Shown here one piece after another: positions 51,935 through 62,331 of a stretch of 64,000 nt of DNA (its first letter is position 1; each line of letters opens with the position of its first letter). Below the pieces are notes generated by a model. It saw only the letters and a list, made by a program, of their open reading frames with translations, searched no databases and was not told where the DNA came from. The position numbers and the translations under genes were made by a program. The DNA is from Roseiflexaceae bacterium (GTDB taxonomy: Bacteria; Chloroflexota; Chloroflexia; Chloroflexales; Roseiflexaceae): assembly GCA_947474225.1 (NCBI GenBank), contig CANJHS010000002.1, positions 1 through 64,000 on the forward strand. Reading direction: 5' to 3'.

Positions 51935-52429
51935 ATGCCAGAATTAAATTCGGTGGCTGCAGTTATCGCTGCTCTGTGCCTCGTTGCTGTGCTACTGGTG
52001 CTGTCGGTGTTCATGCTTGTCACGTCCTGGAAAATTGCTACAAAAGCAGGATACCCTGGCTGGACAATGCTCGTCCCGTACTATGCGACATTTATACTTC
52101 TACGCATTATCAAGCGACCAGCATCATGGGGTTGGATTGTCATTGTGTTGAGCACTGTTCAGACAATACTCTCAATCTATGAATCCATAATGGGAACGAA
52201 AAGTGCAGACCAGCCACTTTGGTATACAACGGTAAGTGTAATCATCCCGTTGATAGCAGCGGTTTATCACGTGCGTATGACACATGGTTTTTCGCGCGTA
52301 TTCGGCAAAACGAAATTGTTTACGCTGGGACTGATTTTTTTACCGGTCATCTTTTTTCCTATTTTGGCCTTTGGGAACGCTCAGTACCAACCAGATGGGA
52401 TGGTCTACAATAGCTACGGAGCCGCATGA
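51935..52429 (+). CDS. DUF5684-like membrane protein, copy 2
   Basis: A 164-residue paralogue of the preceding protein with four hydrophobic segments. KAGYPGWTMLVPYY and LIFLPVIFFPILAFGNAQY align with copy 1. A short polar C-terminal tail is added. GAGGAG lies 6 nt before ATG 51935. The dehydrogenase gene starts 16 bp after its stop, which suggests one transcript. The function is unknown. Confidence 0.82.
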   Translation: MPELNSVAAVIAALCLVAVLLVLSVFMLVTSWKIATKAGYPGWTMLVPYYATFILLRIIKRPASWGWIVIVLSTVQTILSIYESIMGTKSADQPLWYTTVSVIIPLIAAVYHVRMTHGFSRVFGKTKLFTLGLIFLPVIFFPILAFGNAQYQPDGMVYNSYGAA

Positions 52430-52445
52430 CACAAAGAGGTGCAGT

Positions 52446-53486
52446 ATGGGTAGTGTACGAATTGGGATGATTGGCACGGGTGGTATCGCCCGGAACCGGC
52501 ATTTGCCGTGCTTCACCAAAAACACAGATTGTGAAGTTGTCGCAATTGCTGACGTCGTCCAGACATCTCTGGACGAAGTCGGTGCTCAATTCGGGATAAA
52601 TGGACTTTACACCGACTACAAAGAGATGTTTGCAAAAGAGCGTCTTGATGGTGTTGTCGTGTGTACGCCCAACAAATTCCATGCACCTGCCAGCATAGAC
52701 GCCTTGAATGCAGGAATCAATGTACTGTGTGAAAAACCCATGGCACTTGATCCTACGGAAGGTCGTGCAATGATTGCCGCAGCCGAGAAAAACCACAAAA
52801 TTCTGACTGTCGGCTTCCATTATCGTCATCGGGCACAGGTCAAAGCCGCAAAGAAAGTCATTGAAAGCGGCGAGCTCGGACACATTTATATGGTTCGCGT
52901 CAATGCCCTGCGTCGCCGTGGTATACCATCATGGGGTTCTTTTGTCCACAAAGACATCCAAGGCGGTGGGGCTATGATCGACTTCGGCGTCCATACACTC
53001 GATAGCGCACTGTATTTGCTCGGCAATCCTAAACCAATCGAAGTGAGTGCAACGCTCTCTCAACATCTCGGCACGAAACCTAATGTCAATCCATGGGGAC
53101 AGTGGAATTACCAGCAATTTACGGTCGAAGACCAAGTAGCAGCATTTGTGCGCTTCGACAACGGCGCCACAATGCTTCTCGAATGCTCCTGGGCATTGAA
53201 TGTGCCGGAGACGAAAGAGACCATTTCTCTGTCAGGCACCGAGGCAGGGCTCGATGTGTTCCCCCTCAAAATCAACAAGGCGCAACACGACATGCTGCTG
53301 AGTTGGTCACCAGATTGGATGCCCAACGAGAATGACGAACCGGGAATCGGCCAAGCAGCAGACTTCATCAATGCAATCAAGACAGGTCAACCAACCAACT
53401 GCACTGCTGCCCAAGCACTCCAAGTCACGGACATCGTTGATGCAATGTATCGTTCGGCCGCTGCTGGTCACGCGATAAGTCTTTAG
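52446..53486 (+). CDS. Gfo/Idh/MocA-family oxidoreductase
   Basis: A 346-residue NAD(P)-dependent sugar or inositol dehydrogenase-like protein. The N-terminal Rossmann motif is IGMIGTGGIA, the conserved EKP motif (Glu96-Lys97-Pro98) follows VLCEKPMA, and the substrate-domain stretch GGGAMIDFGVHTLDSALYL holds the usual Asp/His pair. I chose ATG 52446 because AGAGG lies 7 nt upstream and the frame before it overlaps the membrane-protein gene. The substrate is unknown. It is followed by a hairpin and the Rrf2 gene. Confidence 0.93.
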   Translation: MGSVRIGMIGTGGIARNRHLPCFTKNTDCEVVAIADVVQTSLDEVGAQFGINGLYTDYKEMFAKERLDGVVVCTPNKFHAPASIDALNAGINVLCEKPMALDPTEGRAMIAAAEKNHKILTVGFHYRHRAQVKAAKKVIESGELGHIYMVRVNALRRRGIPSWGSFVHKDIQGGGAMIDFGVHTLDSALYLLGNPKPIEVSATLSQHLGTKPNVNPWGQWNYQQFTVEDQVAAFVRFDNGATMLLECSWALNVPETKETISLSGTEAGLDVFPLKINKAQHDMLLSWSPDWMPNENDEPGIGQAADFINAIKTGQPTNCTAAQALQVTDIVDAMYRSAAAGHAISL

Positions 53487-53543: not shown

Positions 53544-53978
53544 ATGCGTATCTCGAAGCGTGGTGAATATGGATTACGAGCATTGATTCTGTTAGCTGCG
53601 CACACGCAGAACAACGGCGTGATGCAGATTAAAACTATTGCCGCAGCAGAGCGCATCCCTGTGAAATTCCTTGAACAGATTCTGCTCGCCCTCAAAAATG
53701 CTGGCATTCTCCATAGCAAAATGGGCATCGGCGGAGGCTATTCACTTGCGAAATCCGCAAATGAAATTATGTTGGGAAAAATCATTCGAATCCTCGACGG
53801 GCCACTCGCTCCCATTCGTTGCGTGTCACAGATTGCATATGAAGCATGTAATTGCCCAGATGAAGTCACCTGTAAGCTACGTGCCGTAATGTTTGATGTG
53901 CGTACCGCAATGACCAATATACTCGACAATACCTCGTTGGCAGACATTGTTGATGGAACTTCTTCAATTACCATCTAG
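53544..53978 (+). CDS. Rrf2-family transcriptional regulator with Cys cluster
   Basis: A 144-residue winged-helix regulator. It has MRISKRGEYGLRALILLA at the N-terminus and a VKFLEQILLALKNAGILHSKMG recognition region, both classic for the family. Four Cys in the hinge (Cys93, Cys102, Cys104, Cys110) could ligate an iron-sulfur cluster, as in IscR/NsrR, or form a thiol switch as in CymR. The spacing C-x8-C-x-C-x5-C is not the exact IscR or NsrR pattern. AAGGA precedes the ATG. It shares a CTAG stop palindrome with the convergent gene. Possible targets are the nearby oxidoreductase genes or the cys genes. Confidence 0.9.
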   Translation: MRISKRGEYGLRALILLAAHTQNNGVMQIKTIAAAERIPVKFLEQILLALKNAGILHSKMGIGGGYSLAKSANEIMLGKIIRILDGPLAPIRCVSQIAYEACNCPDEVTCKLRAVMFDVRTAMTNILDNTSLADIVDGTSSITI

Positions 53979-54760
53979 CGCATTGCGTAGGCGACAATCT
54001 GTGCAACGAGTTCGGCAGCGTCGGTATTGATATAGCGGAATTGCATCGGTAGCTTGAGCTTTTCTGCGTGAATCGTAATCGCATTGGTATACGGATCGAC
54101 GCCAATAATATCGTCTACGGCAATGATAGCTGTACGACGATCCCCTTTAAAAACAATCCGCTCTGACGTGATAACTAAATCTCCTCTGGCAACTTCAACT
54201 GTTGCCGTAACCGGGACTGAATGACCACGACTAGCACCGAATCGATATGAAACTCCACGCATGATACGAAATGATACCCCACGACTTCCGCCCACGGTGT
54301 CACGTCGAATAACTTTTTCTTCATACAATCCTACTGGCTCGGACCAATAGCCGACTTCACCTGCACGAAGTTGCACACCGATATTGGCAATTGGGGCGAT
54401 GATACCTTGGCTTAGCTCATACATTTTTCGCTGGATCATCAGCGTACTCAAGATTTCGCCAACGGTGGGCGAGGTGATTTGGGTCAGTGCAACAATATCA
54501 TCTATCGTTTTCAGTTCTGCATCTGTCACCAACCCATCAGATTTGGCTGTAGAAACTGCATCCTTGAGTATGCTGGTACCAACTTCACGCACATCTTCTA
54601 CCGTGAGACCATGAGCGGAAACTTCGGCACGTAATAGCTGAATTTCGGTCGGTGTCAAAACCATATCGGCAATGCTTGTCTTAAATAAATCACGCAATGC
54701 TTCTTTTCCTTGGGAACGTCGCAAAGCATCTTTAACCGAATTAACCAGCTGTTGAAACAT
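53975..54760 (-). CDS. TerB-like helical domain plus PH-like domain protein
   Basis: A 261-residue protein that I recognise only in part. The N-terminal ~110 residues are helical and hold an acidic, TerB-like stretch (TAKSDGLVTDAELKTIDDIV), a fold linked to metal or membrane stress signalling. The C-terminal part (~135-261) is strand-rich and reads like a PH/GRAM domain (GDLVITSERIVFKG, AIIAVDDIIGVD). I chose ATG 54760 because GAGG lies 5 nt upstream. It diverges by 101 bp from the TerY-like VWA gene, and TerB-like proteins belong to the same Ter networks as TerY. It is probably a partner of the phosphorylation cluster. Confidence 0.65.
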   Translation of the reverse strand: MFQQLVNSVKDALRRSQGKEALRDLFKTSIADMVLTPTEIQLLRAEVSAHGLTVEDVREVGTSILKDAVSTAKSDGLVTDAELKTIDDIVALTQITSPTVGEILSTLMIQRKMYELSQGIIAPIANIGVQLRAGEVGYWSEPVGLYEEKVIRRDTVGGSRGVSFRIMRGVSYRFGASRGHSVPVTATVEVARGDLVITSERIVFKGDRRTAIIAVDDIIGVDPYTNAITIHAEKLKLPMQFRYINTDAAELVAQIVAYAMR

Positions 54761-54861
54761 ATGTACCTCATGACGCAATACTGCAAATATGATACCATTG
54801 CGACTATGCAACAATTCACACAAACAAAGCGTCTGTATCGCGAATCAATAAAGGAGTTGTC

Positions 54862-55518
54862 ATGACCACTATTCCAGATGTTTCGTTTGATCCGACCAAT
54901 CCCGATCCACGCTGCGCCTGTATCCTTATCCTTGATACGTCGGGGTCGATGCATGGCGACAAAATCAATCAACTCAATCAGGGTCTGATTGCATTCCGTG
55001 ATGCCCTACAGTCTGATTCTGTAGCCCAATCACGTGTCGAGATTGCTATCGTCACCTTTGGCCCTGCACAATTGGCCCAAGACTTTACGATAGCGGGCAG
55101 CTTTAATCCGCCTACTTTGACTGCCACCGGCGACACCCCACTTGGAGCAGCCCTCCAACAAGGGCTTGACATGCTTGCAATTCGCAAACAACTGTACAAA
55201 GATAATGGGACGCCATACTATCGACCGTGGGTGTTTTTGATTACCGATGGTGCGCCGACGGACGGCGATGCCTGGAAGTCAGCGGCAACCAGAATCATTG
55301 ATGAAGAAAACAAAAAAGGTGTTGCTTTCTTTGCAGTCGGCGTCGAAGGCGCGGACATGCAGGTCCTCAAACAGTTGTCGACCCGCGAGCCACTGACATT
55401 AAACGGTCTGCATTTTCGAGAAATGTTTGTGTGGCTTTCTTCGAGCCTTCAAAAAGTCTCACAATCACAACCAGGCACCCAAGTTCCGCTCGCACCGCCC
55501 ACATGGAACCAGGTCTAG
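54862..55518 (+). CDS. TerY-like VWA-domain protein (YegL-like)
   Basis: A 218-residue soluble von Willebrand A domain. A complete MIDAS metal site is present: DTSGSM (Asp25, Ser27, Ser29), Thr92 in TGDTPLG and Asp129 in LITDGAPTDG. The compact VWA fold without membrane segment matches TerY/YegL. In known TerY-P systems this protein works with a PP2C phosphatase and an atypical kinase. Both are encoded downstream on the same strand, the phosphatase being next. AAGGAG precedes the ATG. A GC-rich 12-bp hairpin separates it from the phosphatase gene. Confidence 0.88.
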   Translation: MTTIPDVSFDPTNPDPRCACILILDTSGSMHGDKINQLNQGLIAFRDALQSDSVAQSRVEIAIVTFGPAQLAQDFTIAGSFNPPTLTATGDTPLGAALQQGLDMLAIRKQLYKDNGTPYYRPWVFLITDGAPTDGDAWKSAATRIIDEENKKGVAFFAVGVEGADMQVLKQLSTREPLTLNGLHFREMFVWLSSSLQKVSQSQPGTQVPLAPPTWNQV

Positions 55519-55524
55519 TGACTC

Positions 55525-55551
55525 CCGCCGGCGCTCAATGAGCGCCGGCGG
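55525..55551 (+). repeat. 12-bp perfect GC hairpin between VWA and PP2C genes
   Basis: CCGCCGGCGCTC (55525-55536) and GAGCGCCGGCGG (55540-55551) flank a 3-nt loop in the 50-bp gap. It would be a very stable RNA hairpin but has no U tract, and it ends 9 bp before the AAGGA of the next gene (ATG 55569). It may protect the upstream transcript or limit translation of the phosphatase. Termination is less likely. Confidence 0.75.
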
Positions 55552-55568
55552 ATCTGCAAAGGAACACC

Positions 55569-56357
55569 ATGAACTGGCGCATTGCCAAGGCATCTATCGT
55601 CGGTACCGGTCATTCCAAAACACATACCCCATGCCAAGATAGTCATTATGTCATGCAACTTGGGAACCAATTGATTGTCGCCGTGTCAGACGGTCTCGGC
55701 TCGGCAGCACTCTCACACGAAGGTTCACGAATTGCATGCAGTGCATCAGTGGCGGCAGTAGCCCAATCATACGACACACAACGTGATGTGGAACTGATGC
55801 GCAACGCTCCTGCTGAAGCGCCTTTGTCACCAATGTCATATGAAATTGTGCTCACGAGCGCATTCTTTGCAGCACGTAACGCAATTGAACGTGAGGCAAC
55901 GAGGACCGCTGCAGCGCTTCGGGATTACGGCTGTACACTCCTTGTGGCAATAATATGCGACGATGGGTGGCACACGATGCACATCGGTGACGGCACCATT
56001 GTCGGGTTGTTTGCAGATCTACCTGCCAAGACGCTGAGCGTTCCCGAAAACGGCGAATTTATTAATTCCACTACCCCACTCACCAGCGACGAATACGTCA
56101 CACACATGCGCTATACACAGGGCGACGATTTGCTTGCAGGCGTCGCACTGTTATCCGATGGTGTCCAGCCGATGTGTATCAACTACCGCACTGGAGCTGC
56201 GTATGATGGGTTTTTTCGACCACTGCAAACATGGCTTGCAGGGTTGACTGAACTCTCAGGTGTAGATACATCACTCGAACAATTCCTCGACACACCCAAA
56301 ATGCGCCAAAAAAGTGACGATGACATGACGTTAGTCTTGGCTTTGCGGGTGCCGTAA
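55569..56357 (+). CDS. PP2C-type protein phosphatase (YegK/PphC-like)
   Basis: A 262-residue Mn/Mg-dependent Ser/Thr phosphatase. Metal-binding stretches are PCQDSH (Asp24), VSDGLGSA (Asp41, Gly42), HIGDGTI, LLSDGV and the final SDDDMTLVL. Shortness and the divergent middle match the phosphatase of TerY-P triads rather than the SpoIIE or PrpC types. It should reverse phosphorylation by the kinase at 58442, acting on the VWA protein, the kinase or others. AAAGGA lies 9 nt before the ATG. The first MOSC gene starts 24 bp after its stop. Confidence 0.9.
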   Translation: MNWRIAKASIVGTGHSKTHTPCQDSHYVMQLGNQLIVAVSDGLGSAALSHEGSRIACSASVAAVAQSYDTQRDVELMRNAPAEAPLSPMSYEIVLTSAFFAARNAIEREATRTAAALRDYGCTLLVAIICDDGWHTMHIGDGTIVGLFADLPAKTLSVPENGEFINSTTPLTSDEYVTHMRYTQGDDLLAGVALLSDGVQPMCINYRTGAAYDGFFRPLQTWLAGLTELSGVDTSLEQFLDTPKMRQKSDDDMTLVLALRVP

Positions 56358-56381
56358 CTCACATAAGGAAGAAAGATCCAA

Positions 56382-57056
56382 ATGCAGCCAATGCATATCA
56401 TCAGCATAAATGTAGGTCAGGCACAACCACTCGATCCGTCCGATCTTACTCGCGGCACATCGGGAATATTTAAAACGCCTATTATGGCACCAGTCGAAAT
56501 AACTCAAACTGGTGTCTCGGGCGATGTCATTGTCAACACACAGAATCACGGTGGAGTCGACCAAGCAGTCTATATCTATGGCCGTCCTGACTACGATGCA
56601 TTCGAGTCGGAATTGGGATATCCGCTTGCAAACGGCATGTTCGGTGAGAATCTCACAATCGCAGGACTTGAGAGTGCACGCTTCACCATTGGAGATAGAC
56701 TAACAATTGGAGTCGTTGTACTCGAGGTTACGGCACCGCGTACACCATGTGCTTCATTAAATGCTCGCATGAAAGACAATCAATTCGTGAAACGATTTTT
56801 CGCGGTCGACCGTCCGGGGTTCTATTGTCGTGTCATCACCCCGGGATTCGTGAAGACGGGCGACACCGTTTTGTATCAGTCGTACCAACGCCCAGGCATC
56901 AGTATTGTCGAAGCGCACCAAACAATGCGTCCAGGGGTGACACATGATACAAAAACAATCCGTCGTTACCTCGCAGAGCCAATTCATCACCGGTTGCGCA
57001 CATACCTCGCCGCAGAACTCGCACACCGTGCCGAATCTGGTGAGAACCTCAGGTAA
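56382..57056 (+). CDS. MOSC-domain protein (YiiM-like), copy 1
   Basis: A 224-residue protein made almost entirely of a MOSC domain. It has GDVIVNTQNHGGVDQAVYIY, GMFGENLTI and a conserved Cys in TAPRTPCASLNARM, expected to handle sulfur or bind molybdenum cofactor. YiiM-like MOSC proteins bind molybdenum cofactor and help detoxify N-hydroxylated base analogues in E. coli. The C-terminal ~45 residues are a helical tail. AAGGA lies 12 nt before the start; another ATG at 56391 is possible. It is placed between the phosphatase and kinase genes of the TerY-P-like cluster, which is unusual. Confidence 0.88.
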   Translation: MQPMHIISINVGQAQPLDPSDLTRGTSGIFKTPIMAPVEITQTGVSGDVIVNTQNHGGVDQAVYIYGRPDYDAFESELGYPLANGMFGENLTIAGLESARFTIGDRLTIGVVVLEVTAPRTPCASLNARMKDNQFVKRFFAVDRPGFYCRVITPGFVKTGDTVLYQSYQRPGISIVEAHQTMRPGVTHDTKTIRRYLAEPIHHRLRTYLAAELAHRAESGENLR

Positions 57057-57104
57057 CCATCAGACCATAATCTGTTGCCATATCACACTATACACTGAGG
57101 GTTT

Positions 57105-57755
57105 ATGCAGGTACTAAGCGTCAACAGAGGCACTGAACTGGCAATCGCCAATGGCAAACGAACAGGAACTTCCGGTATTGACAAGATACCGACGACGCAG
57201 CGCATTGCAGTACGAACTATGGGTCTTGTCGGCGACGTTATTGTTGACACAGAAAATCATGGCGGTGTCGATCAAGCGGTCTATCTCTATGGAACGAACG
57301 ACTATGCCTGGTGGTCAAAACACCTCGGGAAGACACTTCCTCCCGGGACATTCGGTGAGAATTTGACGATTTCGCATCTTTCAAGCGCTTCCTACAACAT
57401 AGGCGATCGCTTCGCCATAGGGGATCTCTTACTGGAGGTCACCGCACCACGCATCCCCTGTGAGACACTCAATGCACGGATGAATGACGCTCAGTTTGTG
57501 AGAACCTTCCGCACGGCCGAACGGCCAGGACTATATTGCCGAGTGCTTATTCCTGGGTTTGTGCAGGTAGGTGCTGCCGTTTTATACCTTCCAGTTCTCC
57601 AACCAATCGTAACAATAATCGAAGCCTTTCGGTTTTACTTTGAACGCGAGCGTCACGACCTCCCGACGCTGCGTCGATTCCTTGCTGCTCCAATCGACAT
57701 TCGTTCACGTACTGAACTCAGTATCGAATATGAAACACTCACACGTGCTCAGTGA
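57105..57755 (+). CDS. MOSC-domain protein (YiiM-like), copy 2
   Basis: A 216-residue paralogue of the preceding MOSC protein. NHGGVDQAVYLYG, TFGENLTI and Cys in APRIPCETLNARM align directly. About half of the residues look identical by eye, so the duplication is old. It keeps all family landmarks, so both copies are probably functional. GAGGG lies 4 nt before the ATG. Two such genes side by side may use different molybdopterin- or sulfur-bearing partners. No molybdoenzyme gene is visible in the window. Confidence 0.88.
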   Translation: MQVLSVNRGTELAIANGKRTGTSGIDKIPTTQRIAVRTMGLVGDVIVDTENHGGVDQAVYLYGTNDYAWWSKHLGKTLPPGTFGENLTISHLSSASYNIGDRFAIGDLLLEVTAPRIPCETLNARMNDAQFVRTFRTAERPGLYCRVLIPGFVQVGAAVLYLPVLQPIVTIIEAFRFYFERERHDLPTLRRFLAAPIDIRSRTELSIEYETLTRAQ

Positions 57756-57846
57756 ATCGATGATTCTTGCCTGTATGGGATAGAAAGACTACCTTGCGCT
57801 GCAGGTTGGTATACTAACGATACTCTCGTTACAAGGATTACATACA

Positions 57847-58437
57847 ATGGGCATGCTCGACGAAATACTCTCACACAATATGGAATATGTTTCCACACGT
57901 CAATACGAATCATTGCAAACAGACAAATTTCCCGATAAAGGCCTTGCGATTTTGGCGTGTATGGACGCACGGTTAGTAGAATTATTGCCGCAAGCACTGG
58001 GCATTCGCAACGGCGATGCCAAACTCATCAAAAATGCAGGCGCTTTGGTCACTGCACCGTGGGGCTCGGTTATGCGTAGTCTTTTAGTCGCCGTCTATGC
58101 ATTACGTGCCGAAGAAATCTGTGTCATCGCGCACTATGACTGCGGTATGGGCACCATCGACGCTACGGCTATTTTGGCAGAAGCGCGCAAACGTGGGATA
58201 TCCGAGGATGTCATTCGCACCCTGCGTGTGTCAGGAATCGATCTCGATGGCTTTTTGAAAGGATTTGCGAATGTCGAAGACAGTGTGCGCAATACGTGTA
58301 CGATTGTCCGACAACATCCGTTGCTCCCCCGCGATGTGCCGGTGCATGGCTTGATTATGGATCCGTCTACAGGGCGACTCGATACCATTGTCAATGGCTA
58401 TGTCGTGATGAACGCAGAGAAGCAGGACGAAGCATAA
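57847..58437 (+). CDS. Beta-carbonic anhydrase (beta-CA)-like protein
   Basis: A 196-residue zinc enzyme that interconverts CO2 and bicarbonate. The zinc ligands and catalytic pair are there: Cys38 and Asp40 in ACMDAR (with Arg42), and His96 and Cys99 in HYDCGM. NAGALVTAPW is the usual substrate loop. It is a short form, like the mycobacterial and plant-type beta-CAs, without a signal peptide. AAGGA lies 10 nt before ATG 57847. The kinase gene begins only 4 bp after its stop, so the two are coupled; a regulatory or CO2-sensing link to the kinase is possible but unproven. Confidence 0.9.
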   Translation: MGMLDEILSHNMEYVSTRQYESLQTDKFPDKGLAILACMDARLVELLPQALGIRNGDAKLIKNAGALVTAPWGSVMRSLLVAVYALRAEEICVIAHYDCGMGTIDATAILAEARKRGISEDVIRTLRVSGIDLDGFLKGFANVEDSVRNTCTIVRQHPLLPRDVPVHGLIMDPSTGRLDTIVNGYVVMNAEKQDEA

Positions 58438-58441
58438 CACG

Positions 58442-61150
58442 ATGACACGCTATACCACCGCAACCAATACCACACTTAACACGACGAAAAAACTCGGCGA
58501 AGGCGGAGAAGGTGCGGTATTTGATATTGCTGGTCAAAGTGGCCTTGTCGCAAAAATCTATCACCCGGCACGACTAAATGCGTCGCTTGCAGCCAAAGTC
58601 ATCGCGATGACCCGGAATCCTCCCGAAGATGCCACGCGCAAATCACTCAATCATGTTTCGATTGCCTGGCCCATCGACGTACTCTACAACGGCACGCAGT
58701 TCGTCGGCTATACCATGCCCAAGATCAAGAAATCTGATGATCTGTATGACCTGCTTCAACCGCAACAGCGTGCAAAAGAACACAGCGGACTGAACCATCG
58801 TCACCTCTATCGTACGGCCCGCAATCTTGCGTTAGCCATGGATGCCATCCATCAAAAAGGCTATGTGATCGGTGATGTAAATTTCAAGAATGCACTTTTC
58901 AATGACGACGCACTTATTACCATGGTCGACTGCGATTCGATGCAAGTCACCGATGCAGCCGGGATTGTTCATCATTGTCTCGTCGGAGTACCCGAGTATA
59001 CTCCTGCAGACTTACAGGGTATGGATTTCGCTCGCGTCACACGCACACCAAACCACGATGCTTTCGGACTGGCAATCCTGATTTTTCAGTTGTTGATGCA
59101 AGGCTTTCATCCTTTTGCCGGCAAGCCGCGACCGGGGGAGAAAGACGTCGAGCAATCGCATATCTACTGCATTAGTAAGGGAATTTTTCCCTACCTCGCA
59201 AATCAACCCTACGAACCACCACGGGCTGCACCATCGATGCTCTGTCTGCCCGTGTTGATCCAGCAACAATTCGAGCGCGCATTCACGAAACCAGACGCAC
59301 GACCTACACCCAAAGAATGGGCCAATCTCCTCGCCATGGTCGAACCACGGCTCATACCATGCCCGAATGATGCCTCACACTGGTATCCGAGCGATGGCCA
59401 TTGTGTAATCTGCGAGATTGACTACAACGTCGGTCGGCGGCAACGAACGAGCCCGAAACCGAGTACCACCGTACAGATGCAGGTGCCGCTGCCACCACAA
59501 CCGAGCATGACAACGGGGCCGCTACGTCCTGCGGCGATTTCGAGACCTGTCGTCAACACACCACAATCTCGCCCGTCGACGCAACCTGTAGCACAACCAC
59601 CGCGACCAGCGCCTGCGACACCGCGACCGACGCCGCCTGCGTCTCCAACGACAGCAGTTGCCCCTGCGGCACAAAGCCTTCCCGTCGCACCACCACGATC
59701 ATCGCAGAACTTGCCACCGTTGGTCAGTCCGCAATCTGCGCCACGCGTGGTCCCACCAAAACCGCAACCACGACAACCGCAGGTCGACTTGCTTGCGCAG
59801 ATTACAACCTTTATCAGCGCACACCGAATCGTGCTAGTGCCGATTGCTGTCATCGTACTTGCACTGGTAATGGTGCTTTCGTCTACCTGGACTGGACAGA
59901 GTAGCCCCGTGCCCGACATATCAATCGCTACGCTGCCCGATGCTACAGCCACGGAGATTATTGTCCCTACTGACAAACCTGCTGCCACCGTTGAAACCAA
60001 ACTGACTGTTGCCCCTGCGCTATCATGTAGTTCTGCCGCCATCATCGATGCCCACTGGCCGATGGTACCAGCAGACATCCGCACCGCCATGCATGCAAAA
60101 CCACTCACCACAACAACCCGACCGTACGATTCACCCGTTCTTAATCTCGTCGGCACTTTCACTGCGGCATCACCCAGCACACGCTTTGCCGAACTCGCAG
60201 CGACATGCCAGAAAGGAATCTTGCTGCAGAGCAATCCGTTAGCGTATACAACTGGTGATCACCAACGAACAGAACGAACATGTGTGCGTCCTGGGTGCGA
60301 GATAGTTACACCCGAATACCGAGTAGTGTTCATTCGGAACGCAGTCAATGATAACGACAACAAAGAACAGTCCGGCACTTTTGATATTCTTTTTCATTTT
60401 TTTGACCGACCAAATCCGCTAGGCATTAAAAACGTAGGATTTTTGGCGGATGCTTCGGCGGGAAAAAAATCGCTTGCGCTCCATTTACTTCCCTTTATAC
60501 AGTCTCGCATTTTGATAATGAAAGTCGGCAACCCGATCTGGCAGAATGCACGCAACGGGACAGAAACAACGATGGTCGATGTTGCTAGCGGTGAACAATA
60601 CTATGACGAAAAATCCGGGATAACTCGTGCACCAGCAGACTTGAAACTCACGCAGTTCTCGCGCGTGATTGCGCTTCCTGATCAACGCTGGTCAGATGGT
60701 TCTCAAGTCACCGCAGCTGATTATGTCAAAGGATTTACAGCGAATCTGAATGAAAGTAGTGTGTTGATTACACAGGTAGAAGCAGCGGGCCCAAAACAAA
60801 TTGTTATCCGCTACATTGCTGGGCTTCCACAAGTCCTCGCTGATGTCATCGCCCCACTCGCACTCCACGGGGAAGATATACTCGATGACAGCATGGGCAG
60901 CTGGGCGGTGGAACGCAATGGAATGTCGATGACCGTCGCACACACCTCCGACCCACGAAAGTCATTTACGGTTACTTCACTGACCCAAGTGCAACAAATG
61001 GTCTCTGGACTCCGTAAGGGTATCTATGATGTCGCAATAACGGAACCGGAGCAGAGCCCCGCGCTCCTCGAAGCGCTTGTTGGTGTCGACATGGGTCAAT
61101 ACACCATTCGTCTTGTCCCAACAGGAACACTGTGGGTACTACAACAGTAA
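58442..61150 (+). CDS. Transmembrane atypical Ser/Thr kinase (YegI/TerY-P type) with SBP-like outer domain
   Basis: A 902-residue protein. Residues ~15-300 are a divergent kinase domain: glycine loop GEGGEGAV (19-26), Lys38 in VAKIY, catalytic loop GDVNFKN (Asp145, Asn150) and VDCDS (Asp163) in place of DFG. A Cys/His knuckle follows (Cys307 to Cys324: CPNDASHWYPSDGHCVIC). These features match the HHH/TerY-C-linked kinases of COG4248. Residues ~335-455 are a Pro/Thr-rich linker and ~462-481 a transmembrane helix. The outer part (~490-902) contains RWSDGSQVTAADYVKGF, a signature of family 5 peptide-binding proteins. The layout predicts a ligand-sensing kinase. A TerY-P kinase with such an outer domain is unusual to me. 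Confidence 0.88.
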   Translation: MTRYTTATNTTLNTTKKLGEGGEGAVFDIAGQSGLVAKIYHPARLNASLAAKVIAMTRNPPEDATRKSLNHVSIAWPIDVLYNGTQFVGYTMPKIKKSDDLYDLLQPQQRAKEHSGLNHRHLYRTARNLALAMDAIHQKGYVIGDVNFKNALFNDDALITMVDCDSMQVTDAAGIVHHCLVGVPEYTPADLQGMDFARVTRTPNHDAFGLAILIFQLLMQGFHPFAGKPRPGEKDVEQSHIYCISKGIFPYLANQPYEPPRAAPSMLCLPVLIQQQFERAFTKPDARPTPKEWANLLAMVEPRLIPCPNDASHWYPSDGHCVICEIDYNVGRRQRTSPKPSTTVQMQVPLPPQPSMTTGPLRPAAISRPVVNTPQSRPSTQPVAQPPRPAPATPRPTPPASPTTAVAPAAQSLPVAPPRSSQNLPPLVSPQSAPRVVPPKPQPRQPQVDLLAQITTFISAHRIVLVPIAVIVLALVMVLSSTWTGQSSPVPDISIATLPDATATEIIVPTDKPAATVETKLTVAPALSCSSAAIIDAHWPMVPADIRTAMHAKPLTTTTRPYDSPVLNLVGTFTAASPSTRFAELAATCQKGILLQSNPLAYTTGDHQRTERTCVRPGCEIVTPEYRVVFIRNAVNDNDNKEQSGTFDILFHFFDRPNPLGIKNVGFLADASAGKKSLALHLLPFIQSRILIMKVGNPIWQNARNGTETTMVDVASGEQYYDEKSGITRAPADLKLTQFSRVIALPDQRWSDGSQVTAADYVKGFTANLNESSVLITQVEAAGPKQIVIRYIAGLPQVLADVIAPLALHGEDILDDSMGSWAVERNGMSMTVAHTSDPRKSFTVTSLTQVQQMVSGLRKGIYDVAITEPEQSPALLEALVGVDMGQYTIRLVPTGTLWVLQQ

Positions 61151-61161
61151 GGGAACCGCTC

Positions 61162-62331
61162 ATGCGTCGTACTTCAATACTCTATGCGTTGGTGATTAGC
61201 TTATTCATTATGTCATGTGGAACCATTTCGCGTCTCGCCGAAAATTCCATTCCGACCCCACAAACTATCGTTATCACCGCAACACCAGACCAGACGATCA
61301 CCGACATAGCGACAAACGAACCTGTTGCGAATCCAGAACCAACCGTTGCCTCGGAGGTGGGTGAATCGACACTTGTGGCTGTGCAAGCGCGGGGAATGCT
61401 ACGCTGTGGCGTGAATGCAGACCTTCCAGGGTTCGGCCTCTATGATGCAGTACGCAAACGCTGGAGTGGGTTTGATGTGGACTTCTGCAAAGTCATTGCT
61501 GCTGCAGTCCTTGGCGACCCCAGTAAGGTGGAATATATCCCTGTGACGACAGCAGATGGCCCGAACGAACGATTAAACGCCGTCCGAACCAAACTTATTG
61601 ATGTATTGATTCGCAATACGACGTGGACTGCCACCCGCGATGGTTCGCAACTCATGTTTGCGCCGACGACATTTCATGATGGTCAGACATTTATGGTGCG
61701 TGTCGATAGCGGGATTACAAAACTCGCAGATTTAAAGGGCAAACGCATCTGCGCGGCTAGCGGGACAACGACGGTGATGAATGTCCGAGATGACTTTGCT
61801 GCCCGTGATATCCCGTTCGATTTAATCGAAATTGACGGCGAAAAACTCTATAGCAGTTATGCTGATGGGCTGTGTGATGCGGTCACCAGCGATAGCAGTC
61901 AACTCGCAGTGCAACGGATCAATCTCAAAAATCCAGAACAGCACGTCGTGCTCGGCGACCGTATCTCGCGTGAACCGCTCGGTCCCGTTGTCGCCGAAGG
62001 AGACGACCAGTGGTACGACATTGTCAGCTGGAGTGTGTATGCAACCATGTATGCCGAAGAATTACGTGTCGATCGATCAAATGTTGACGAGGCGATTGCT
62101 TCGAGTACCGATCCGCGTGTCCTGCGCTTGTTGGGTGTCGATGGCAAAATCGGCAGCCAGTTCGGTCTCTCACCGGACTTTGCATACCAGATTATTTCGA
62201 AAGTGGGGAACTACGGGGATATCTACAATGATAATCTCGGTCCAGATACGACATTCAACATCGACCGCGGGCCCAACAAAGCATGGAATTTAGGTGGTGG
62301 TGGCGTCCTCGCATCGCCGCCATTCCGCTAA
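61162..62331 (+). CDS. Family 3 amino-acid-binding lipoprotein without transporter genes
   Basis: A 389-residue lipoprotein with lipobox IMSCG (Cys19) and a Pro/Thr-rich spacer to about residue 75. A type 2 periplasmic-binding domain of the amino acid (AapJ/GltI-like) family follows: VQARGMLRCGVNADLPGFG, WSGFDVDFCKVIAAAVLGD, VRTKLIDVLIRNTTWT and the DLKGKRICAASGTTT stretch. I chose ATG 61162 with AAGGGA 8 nt upstream. It is co-transcribed with the kinase 11 bp before it. No permease or ATPase gene is nearby, so it may serve as a sensor or ligand-delivery partner for the kinase rather than uptake. Confidence 0.88.
   Translation: MRRTSILYALVISLFIMSCGTISRLAENSIPTPQTIVITATPDQTITDIATNEPVANPEPTVASEVGESTLVAVQARGMLRCGVNADLPGFGLYDAVRKRWSGFDVDFCKVIAAAVLGDPSKVEYIPVTTADGPNERLNAVRTKLIDVLIRNTTWTATRDGSQLMFAPTTFHDGQTFMVRVDSGITKLADLKGKRICAASGTTTVMNVRDDFAARDIPFDLIEIDGEKLYSSYADGLCDAVTSDSSQLAVQRINLKNPEQHVVLGDRISREPLGPVVAEGDDQWYDIVSWSVYATMYAEELRVDRSNVDEAIASSTDPRVLRLLGVDGKIGSQFGLSPDFAYQIISKVGNYGDIYNDNLGPDTTFNIDRGPNKAWNLGGGGVLASPPFR

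What the first reader, a model, noticed from the sequence alone, without database searches (positions are those of the whole stretch)
53975..62331. Candidate ligand-sensing TerY-P phosphorylation cluster with MOSC and carbonic anhydrase genes inserted
Seen: on the plus strand a VWA (TerY-like) protein, a PP2C phosphatase, two MOSC proteins, a beta-carbonic anhydrase, a transmembrane atypical kinase and an SBP lipoprotein are consecutive, with a TerB-like/PH-like gene diverging. Known: VWA, PP2C and kinase form the TerY-P triad (E. coli yegL/yegK/yegI). Inferred: the kinase reads an outside ligand and the VWA protein and phosphatase relay or reset the signal, with the TerB-like protein as an effector. 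I do not know a described cluster with this exact order. The extra genes between phosphatase and kinase are either functional members or later insertions.
Basis: partly seen in the sequence, partly recalled or inferred. Interest (0 to 1): 0.85.

Follow-up and report, generated by a model that had tools for sequence, protein, structure and literature searches.

The report
Amino-acid-sensing kinase operon in lake bacteria
A conserved gene cluster of freshwater Chloroflexota joins a known bacterial phosphorylation switch (kinase, phosphatase, adaptor) to an amino-acid-binding lipoprotein without a detected transporter and a carbonic anhydrase, which suggests, but does not prove, that the cell reads outside amino acids with a protein kinase.

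Summary
The window belongs to a freshwater Chloroflexota genus (Roseiflexaceae; called UBA965 here from one record title). VWA, PP2C and a kinase with a zinc-ribbon motif form a TerY-P triad with the checked catalytic motifs intact. (1) Beta-carbonic anhydrase sits directly before the kinase in 8 of 8 loci of the genus that reach that point. (2) The SBP lipoprotein directly follows the kinase in 9 of 9 genomes that hold it. (3) MOSC is optional: found in 5 of 7 loci, doubled in one, frameshifted in one. (4) None of the three was found in 21 kinase loci outside the genus, 19 of which have the triad. New here: the kinase's outer domain is related to the first half of family-5 solute-binding proteins, and the lipoprotein belongs to an amino-acid-binding lineage with no permease seen beside it; the genus has no matching permease above cut-off (0 of 11 genomes, against 13 of 14 relatives). 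Best reading: an amino-acid-sensing TerY-P switch that works like GlnH-GlnX-PknG but is built differently. What the carbonic anhydrase and MOSC do is open. New variant of a known kind.

The parts
53975..54760 (-). TerB-like protein, diverging (ORF opens at 54823; likely start near 54760)
   Evidence: diverging ortholog in 7 of 7 loci that reach it, window included
54862..55518 (+). TerY-like VWA protein, MIDAS motif intact (D25-x-S27-x-S29, T92, D129)
   Evidence: invariant in 8 sequences
55569..56357 (+). PP2C-type protein phosphatase, metal-site Asp residues intact
   Evidence: 6 sequences
56382..57056 (+). MOSC protein 1 (nearest NCBIfam model: 6-hydroxyaminopurine reductase, below cut-off), Cys123 kept; optional in the genus
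57105..57755 (+). MOSC protein 2, about 50% identical to MOSC 1; a second copy only in the window among 7 loci
57847..58437 (+). Beta-carbonic anhydrase, residues C38, D40, R42, H96, C99 invariant in 7 sequences; the only Pro_CA match in the genome
58442..61150 (+). Transmembrane Ser/Thr kinase: kinase about aa 1-300, zinc-ribbon motif aa 307-324, Pro-rich linker, one hydrophobic segment near aa 463-481, outer domain aa 529-902 whose last about 245 residues are related to the first half of family-5 solute-binding proteins
61162..62331 (+). SBP_bac_3 lipoprotein (AapJ/GlnH-like), lipobox Cys, no cognate permease detected

Best explanation
This is a TerY-P phosphorylation switch that has gained an amino-acid sensor. 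The lipoprotein (61162-62331), anchored outside the membrane, binds an amino acid. It docks on the kinase's outer domain, which is built from about half of a family-5 solute-binding fold. This changes the activity of the cytoplasmic kinase through its single transmembrane helix. The kinase phosphorylates the VWA protein, or targets that the VWA protein presents, and the PP2C enzyme resets them. The beta-carbonic anhydrase is most likely co-expressed and a stable metabolic partner or output (supply of bicarbonate); MOSC is an accessory. Shown: gene content, kept catalytic motifs, close spacing, presence across the genus, absence of a matching permease at the cut-off used. Inferred: ligand, docking, phosphotransfer, targets, co-transcription, role of carbonic anhydrase.
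For: Kinase residues K38, D145, N150, D163 invariant in 12 kinases; VWA and PP2C sites kept. Lipoprotein directly follows the kinase in 9 of 9 genomes that hold it (in G006 and G007 seen only as a short kinase C-terminus at a contig end, G007 at E 3.2e-4), 10-11 bp apart in the 6 loci measured. In the tree the 8 cluster lipoproteins form one clade (100/100) and 7 AapJ-type proteins with permeases beside them another (100/100); 6 relatives in other genera have no permease in the stretch fetched, two of these stretches being only 3.0 and 5.3 kb. Permease TIGR01726 over cut-off: 0 of 11 genus genomes, 13 of 14 other Chloroflexales. The 6 solved relatives of the lipoprotein listed are amino-acid-type binding proteins, two of them GlnH; GlnH is the sensor for kinase PknG (PMC6069109, passages; PMC9769921, abstract). 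Outer domain: its profile hit frames in 10 of the genomes outside the genus, and in one hit frame from each of the 10 the match overlaps SBP_bac_5; all 50 Foldseek rows shown are, by title or recall of the name, solute-binding proteins, best E 4.9e-6. Carbonic anhydrase to kinase -4 to 29 bp in 8 of 8 loci; it is the single Pro_CA match in the 8 of 11 genus genomes that have one.
Against: No experiment, no transcripts. The carbonic anhydrase may serve general metabolism and share the operon by chance. Gene order in the genus is also kept for about 11 kb beyond the cluster, so shared order alone is weak evidence. The place between PP2C and kinase holds unrelated genes elsewhere (Uma2 in L051; a transglutaminase-like gene, below cut-off, in L065). 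The outer domain has no direct Pfam match (0.13 in 1 of 8), its profile hits are modest (E 9e-4 to 3e-8 per genome), its model is moderate (pLDDT 67) with VIA Z at most 6.6, and the full-length model failed. The genomes are drafts. TIGR01726 would miss a very divergent permease.
Confidence: 0.5

Rival explanations
1. An ordinary TerY-P triad of unknown stimulus with passengers: carbonic anhydrase, MOSC and lipoprotein are housekeeping genes that share the operon but not the pathway.
For: 0 of 21 out-of-genus kinase loci have them; the genome's own second triad lacks them; 8 of 8 out-of-genus relatives of the carbonic anhydrase have no other cluster gene within the about 1.5 kb held on each side; MOSC count varies and one copy is frameshifted; other genes occupy the same gap in two other lineages; flanking order is kept too.
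Against: Lipoprotein and carbonic anhydrase are in every locus of the genus that reaches them; close spacing on both sides of the kinase; the lipoprotein has no detected permease, so it needs some other partner.
Confidence: 0.33
2. The lipoprotein still serves transport with an unrecognised permease; its place beside the kinase only coordinates expression.
For: It belongs to the amino-acid transporter binding-protein family (TIGR01096, below cut-off; best solved relative 4z9n).
Against: 0 of 11 genus genomes have a TIGR01726 permease over cut-off; the one weak own-genome hit lies in a peptide-transporter-like operon by reading; the protein groups apart from the 7 permease-linked ones.
Confidence: 0.1
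3. An antiphage or stress-response module: TerY-P-like triads have been shown or proposed in defence and tellurite resistance.
For: PMC11090510 (passages) describes TerY-P in restriction-linked and defence contexts; weak PADLOC matches to TerY, PD-T4-6, PDC-S48 and AbiEi.
Against: No nuclease, helicase or other effector recognised in the cluster; it is in every genus genome whose contigs reach it, not patchy (nothing found in G004, 72% complete); PADLOC scores are low (13 to 34 bits).
Confidence: 0.05

Closest known systems
TerY-P triad (VWA + PP2C + kinase fused to a zinc ribbon; definition from PMC11090510, passages)
   Same: All three proteins, motifs kept, C-x5-H-x7-C-x2-C motif after the kinase domain, TerB-like neighbour.
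   Different: Three genes lie between PP2C and kinase; the kinase has an outer domain related to half a family-5 solute-binding protein; a lipoprotein gene follows.
GlnH-GlnX-PknG amino-acid sensing in Actinobacteria (PMC6069109, passages; PMC9769921, abstract)
   Same: Family-3 solute-binding lipoprotein encoded with a Ser/Thr kinase; GlnH is among the lipoprotein's solved relatives.
   Different: No separate GlnX-like membrane protein was recognised in the cluster; here the kinase itself spans the membrane; VWA and PP2C genes present.
AapJQMP general amino-acid ABC transporter (name recalled)
   Same: The lipoprotein is of the same binding-protein kind.
   Different: No permease beside it in the stretches held, nor elsewhere above cut-off in the genus.
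Ser/Thr kinase fused to an extracellular solute-binding protein (Streptomyces coelicolor entry in a table of PMC1262709, passages)
   Same: Kinase plus solute-binding-type domain in one protein.
   Different: Here the domain is about half a family-5 fold, the kinase belongs to a VWA-PP2C triad, and a separate family-3 lipoprotein follows.
Beta-carbonic anhydrases such as 6y04, 1g5c and Rv1284 (1ylk)
   Same: Zinc-site residues kept.
   Different: Encoded inside a kinase operon; activity not tested.

Membership tests
TerY-P triad | VWA protein with complete MIDAS motif (DxSxS...T...D) | tested here: met
   invariant in 8 sequences
TerY-P triad | PP2C-like phosphatase next to it | tested here: met
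   Asp residues kept in 6 sequences
TerY-P triad | Ser/Thr kinase with a zinc ribbon at the C-terminal side of the kinase domain | tested here: met
   motif at aa 307-324; a like motif in 17 of the other 22 kinases given to that script. Two of the 21 out-of-genus kinases (L060, L064) were not given to it. The motif is a pattern match, not a structure
TerY-P triad | Three genes adjacent | tested here: inconclusive
   VWA and PP2C adjacent; three genes separate PP2C and kinase; adjacent in the genome's second triad
TerY-P triad | Metal-sensing phosphorylation switch (hypothesised function) | not testable with these tools
   needs biochemistry
GlnH-GlnX-PknG system | Family-3 solute-binding lipoprotein in the kinase operon | tested here: met
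   (operon by spacing only)
GlnH-GlnX-PknG system | Separate multi-span GlnX membrane protein | tested here: not met
   none recognised between 53975 and 62331
GlnH-GlnX-PknG system | FHA protein GarA/OdhI as substrate | not tested
   no FHA search was run
AapJQMP transporter | Permease genes beside the binding protein | tested here: not met
   0 of 8 cluster loci, some cut by contig ends, against 7 of 7 rows of the AapJ-type clade
AapJQMP transporter | Permease of the TIGR01726 kind anywhere in the genome | tested here: not met
   0 of 11 genus genomes over cut-off; weak hits of at most 24.7 bits in 9 of the 11
Beta-carbonic anhydrase | Zinc-site Cys, Asp-Arg pair, His, Cys | tested here: met
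   invariant in 7 sequences
Beta-carbonic anhydrase | CO2 hydration activity | not testable with these tools
   needs an assay; the profile also matches CS2 and COS hydrolases
Family-5 solute-binding protein (kinase outer domain) | Sequence relation to PF00496 | tested here: met
   10 of 10 out-of-genus hit frames scanned are PF00496 proteins, with the match overlapping that domain; no direct Pfam match (0.13 in 1 of 8); a second hit in G075 was not scanned
Family-5 solute-binding protein (kinase outer domain) | Complete two-lobed ligand-binding fold | tested here: inconclusive
   model residues 129-374 align to about half the fold, Z at most 6.6

The most novel reading that the evidence does not exclude
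A membrane-spanning TerY-P kinase reads extracellular amino acids through a binding lipoprotein that has lost its transporter, and sets inorganic-carbon use by acting on the co-encoded carbonic anhydrase, the only beta-type found in its genome. A phototrophic freshwater bacterium could thereby switch between feeding on amino acids and using bicarbonate. It would be a second, independently built route from a solute-binding protein to a bacterial Ser/Thr kinase.
Probability: 0.15. Interest if true: 0.8.

Novelty: new variant of a known kind. Interest (0 to 1): 0.55.

Why it matters
PMC11090510 (passages) gives only a hypothesis, metal sensing, for what TerY-P switches respond to. This cluster offers a concrete candidate stimulus (an amino acid), a candidate receptor (the lipoprotein) and a built-in sensor domain, all testable with purified parts. 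PMC6069109 (passages) called solute-binding proteins as sensors for Ser/Thr kinases a new role; this would be a separate case outside Actinobacteria.

Tried and rejected
Kinase full-length model: poor (pLDDT 42), not used. Pfam and solved-structure sequence search on the outer domain gave nothing significant. An alignment of family-5 proteins was made and not used. In one search one of seven frames scanned (in L132) was not the frame that bears the hit; the right frame and three further ones were scanned. Gene-order conservation as proof of function: rejected after the control, because the conserved block also runs about 11 kb downstream into other genes. The idea that a permease of the own genome at C6 partners the lipoprotein: rejected, that hit (22.1 bits, below cut-off) lies in a peptide-transporter-like operon by reading of the translations. 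Lack of molybdenum cofactor as a reason for MOSC variation: MoaC is present in 25 of 25 genomes. Promoter scan: fewer hits than in shuffles, no use. Relatives of the carbonic anhydrase outside the genus (8 genomes of 158 searched) showed no other cluster gene within about 1.5 kb. Literature: 0 papers of the held library hold at least 4 of the 5 terms carbonic anhydrase, MOSC domain, PP2C, von Willebrand factor, Chloroflexi; some searches were other searches. This does not show that nothing is in print. The second aligner listed one unrelated row among its 50 (rank 41).

Full report
What is there. The eight genes exist as described. The window is contig C2 of a 2.97 Mb draft genome, 87% complete. 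Records of close relatives are titled 'Roseiflexaceae bacterium', one of them UBA965, though two carry other names. I use UBA965 as the genus name by inference from that title and matching contig lengths. PMC10103773 (passages) lists UBA965 among Chloroflexia genera of a freshwater lake. Reaction-centre genes (PF00124) are in 9 of 11 genus genomes.

Core triad. VWA has a complete MIDAS motif in 8 of 8 aligned sequences, PP2C keeps its metal-site Asp residues in 6 of 6, and the kinase keeps K38, D145, N150 and D163 in 12 of 12. After the kinase domain lies a C-x5-H-x7-C-x2-C motif; a like motif was found in 18 of 23 kinases given to a script, the window's included; L060 and L064 of the 21 out-of-genus loci were not given, and the two Herpetosiphon kinases (L066, L068) lack it. 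This meets the TerY-P definition in PMC11090510 (passages), except that the genes are not all adjacent.

What the genus shows. Ten congeners were searched (SBP3) and loci came from nine; they were mapped with the window's proteins. Carbonic anhydrase lies directly before the kinase in 8 of 8 loci that reach it (window, G001, G002, G005, G006, G008, G009, G010), -4 to 29 bp away. The lipoprotein lies directly after the kinase in 9 of 9 genomes where it was found; in G006 and G007 only a short kinase C-terminus is left at the contig end (G007 weak at 3.2e-4). Spacing is 10-11 bp in the 6 loci measured. The diverging TerB-like gene is in 7 of 7 loci that reach it. MOSC is in 5 of 7 loci: two copies in the window, one in G002, G006 and G009, and one in G010 that is frameshifted near residue 184; none in G005 and G008. 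G004 (72% complete) gave nothing. So carbonic anhydrase and lipoprotein are stable members, MOSC is optional.

What lies outside. A scan of named genomes gave 35 kinase loci, 14 of them from the genus. Of the other 21, 19 have VWA and PP2C with the kinase; carbonic anhydrase, MOSC, this lipoprotein and the TerB-like gene were found in 0 of 21. The profiles were built from the genus, E up to 1e-4, and the stretches held run from 7 to 21 kb, so remote or distant copies could be missed. The own genome has a second triad on C55 without these genes; its kinase carries RCC1 repeats and it lies next to NADH dehydrogenase genes. Other genes can sit between PP2C and kinase elsewhere: Uma2 in L051 and a transglutaminase-like gene, below cut-off, in L065. 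That position is permissive, which speaks for passengers. Eight genomes outside the genus, of 158 searched, have a relative of the carbonic anhydrase; none of the eight has another cluster gene within about 1.5 kb.

Control for gene order. Against 67.6 kb of G002 and 40 of 41 kb of G009, 0 of 39 window reading frames upstream of the GFO gene (52371) match, while the 12 from there to the window's end do. Beyond the window the match goes on: 8 frames in order over about 11 kb past the homocysteine methyltransferase gene, 9 of 15 frames in all. The cluster stands at the edge of a conserved block; order alone is weak support.

The lipoprotein. It is an AapJ/GlnH-type binding protein: best solved relative 4z9n, with two GlnH sequences among the six listed. 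In a tree of 23 rows the eight cluster proteins form a clade (100/100), and seven AapJ-type proteins with permeases beside them form another (100/100). Six proteins of other genera without a permease in the stretch fetched fall outside the permease-linked clade; two of those stretches are only 3.0 and 5.3 kb. G029 and G033 are long branches and uncertain; G033 also has permeases beside it. Over the curated cut-off, TIGR01726 permeases were found in 0 of 11 genus genomes and 13 of 14 other Chloroflexales. A second, shorter SBP_bac_3 protein exists in 9 of 11 genus genomes; in the two inspected there is no permease beside it by reading. This makes a sensing role more likely than transport.

The kinase's outer domain. 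A profile of eight outer domains, searched in 158 genomes, hit 10 genomes outside the genus. One hit frame from each of the 10 was scanned: all 10 are SBP_bac_5 proteins, and the match overlaps the early part of that domain. The hits are modest (E 9e-4 to 3e-8 per genome). The model (pLDDT 67, pTM 0.64) matches solute-binding proteins, by title or recall of the name, in all 50 Foldseek rows shown and in 49 of 50 rows of the second aligner, over model residues of about 130-374, with Z at most 6.6, not high by itself. I read it as about half of such a fold. Direct Pfam support is nil (0.13). Solo kinases in G002, G005 and G009 share only the two ends of this domain.

Carbonic anhydrase and MOSC. 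The enzyme keeps its zinc-site residues and resembles 6y04, 1g5c and Rv1284. It is the single Pro_CA match in each of the 8 genus genomes that have one; 3 of 11 have none, two of these (G003, G007) with a cluster cut at the kinase and G004 without any. Other classes of carbonic anhydrase were not searched. Its role in the pathway is unknown. MOSC proteins have a possible cofactor source (MoaC in 25 of 25 genomes).

Mechanism and limits. The best reading is amino acid, lipoprotein, kinase outer domain, kinase, VWA-presented target, with PP2C as reset. The steps after gene content, motifs and spacing are inference. It works like GlnH-GlnX-PknG (PMC6069109, passages; PMC9769921, abstract) but fails that system's membership test, since no separate GlnX was recognised. 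It is filed as a TerY-P variant.

Noticed in passing
L021 1320-7024 (own genome, contig C55): A second VWA-PP2C-kinase triad whose kinase carries RCC1 repeats, next to NADH dehydrogenase subunit genes; triads of this type also in G006, G007 and G010.
   Followed up: partly
L029 7779-9977, L030 8946-11300, L031 6452-8620: Solo kinases of the same family without VWA or PP2C in the fetched stretch; their outer domain shares only both ends with that of the window kinase.
   Followed up: partly
L022 4240-5200 (G010): MOSC gene frameshifted near residue 184; could be real decay or an assembly error.
   Followed up: partly
L151 3730-4563 and L152 3643-4449: A second, short SBP_bac_3 protein of the genus, again with no permease gene beside it by reading, next to an FtsH-like AAA protease gene by eye.
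   Followed up: partly
window 52371-53486: The GFO-type oxidoreductase ORF opens about 25 codons before the stretch that matches its orthologs and overlaps the preceding ORF; the true start is probably near 52446.
   Followed up: no
L051 8971-9771: In a Chloroheliaceae relative a Uma2-type gene sits between PP2C and a kinase with WD40 repeats.
   Followed up: partly
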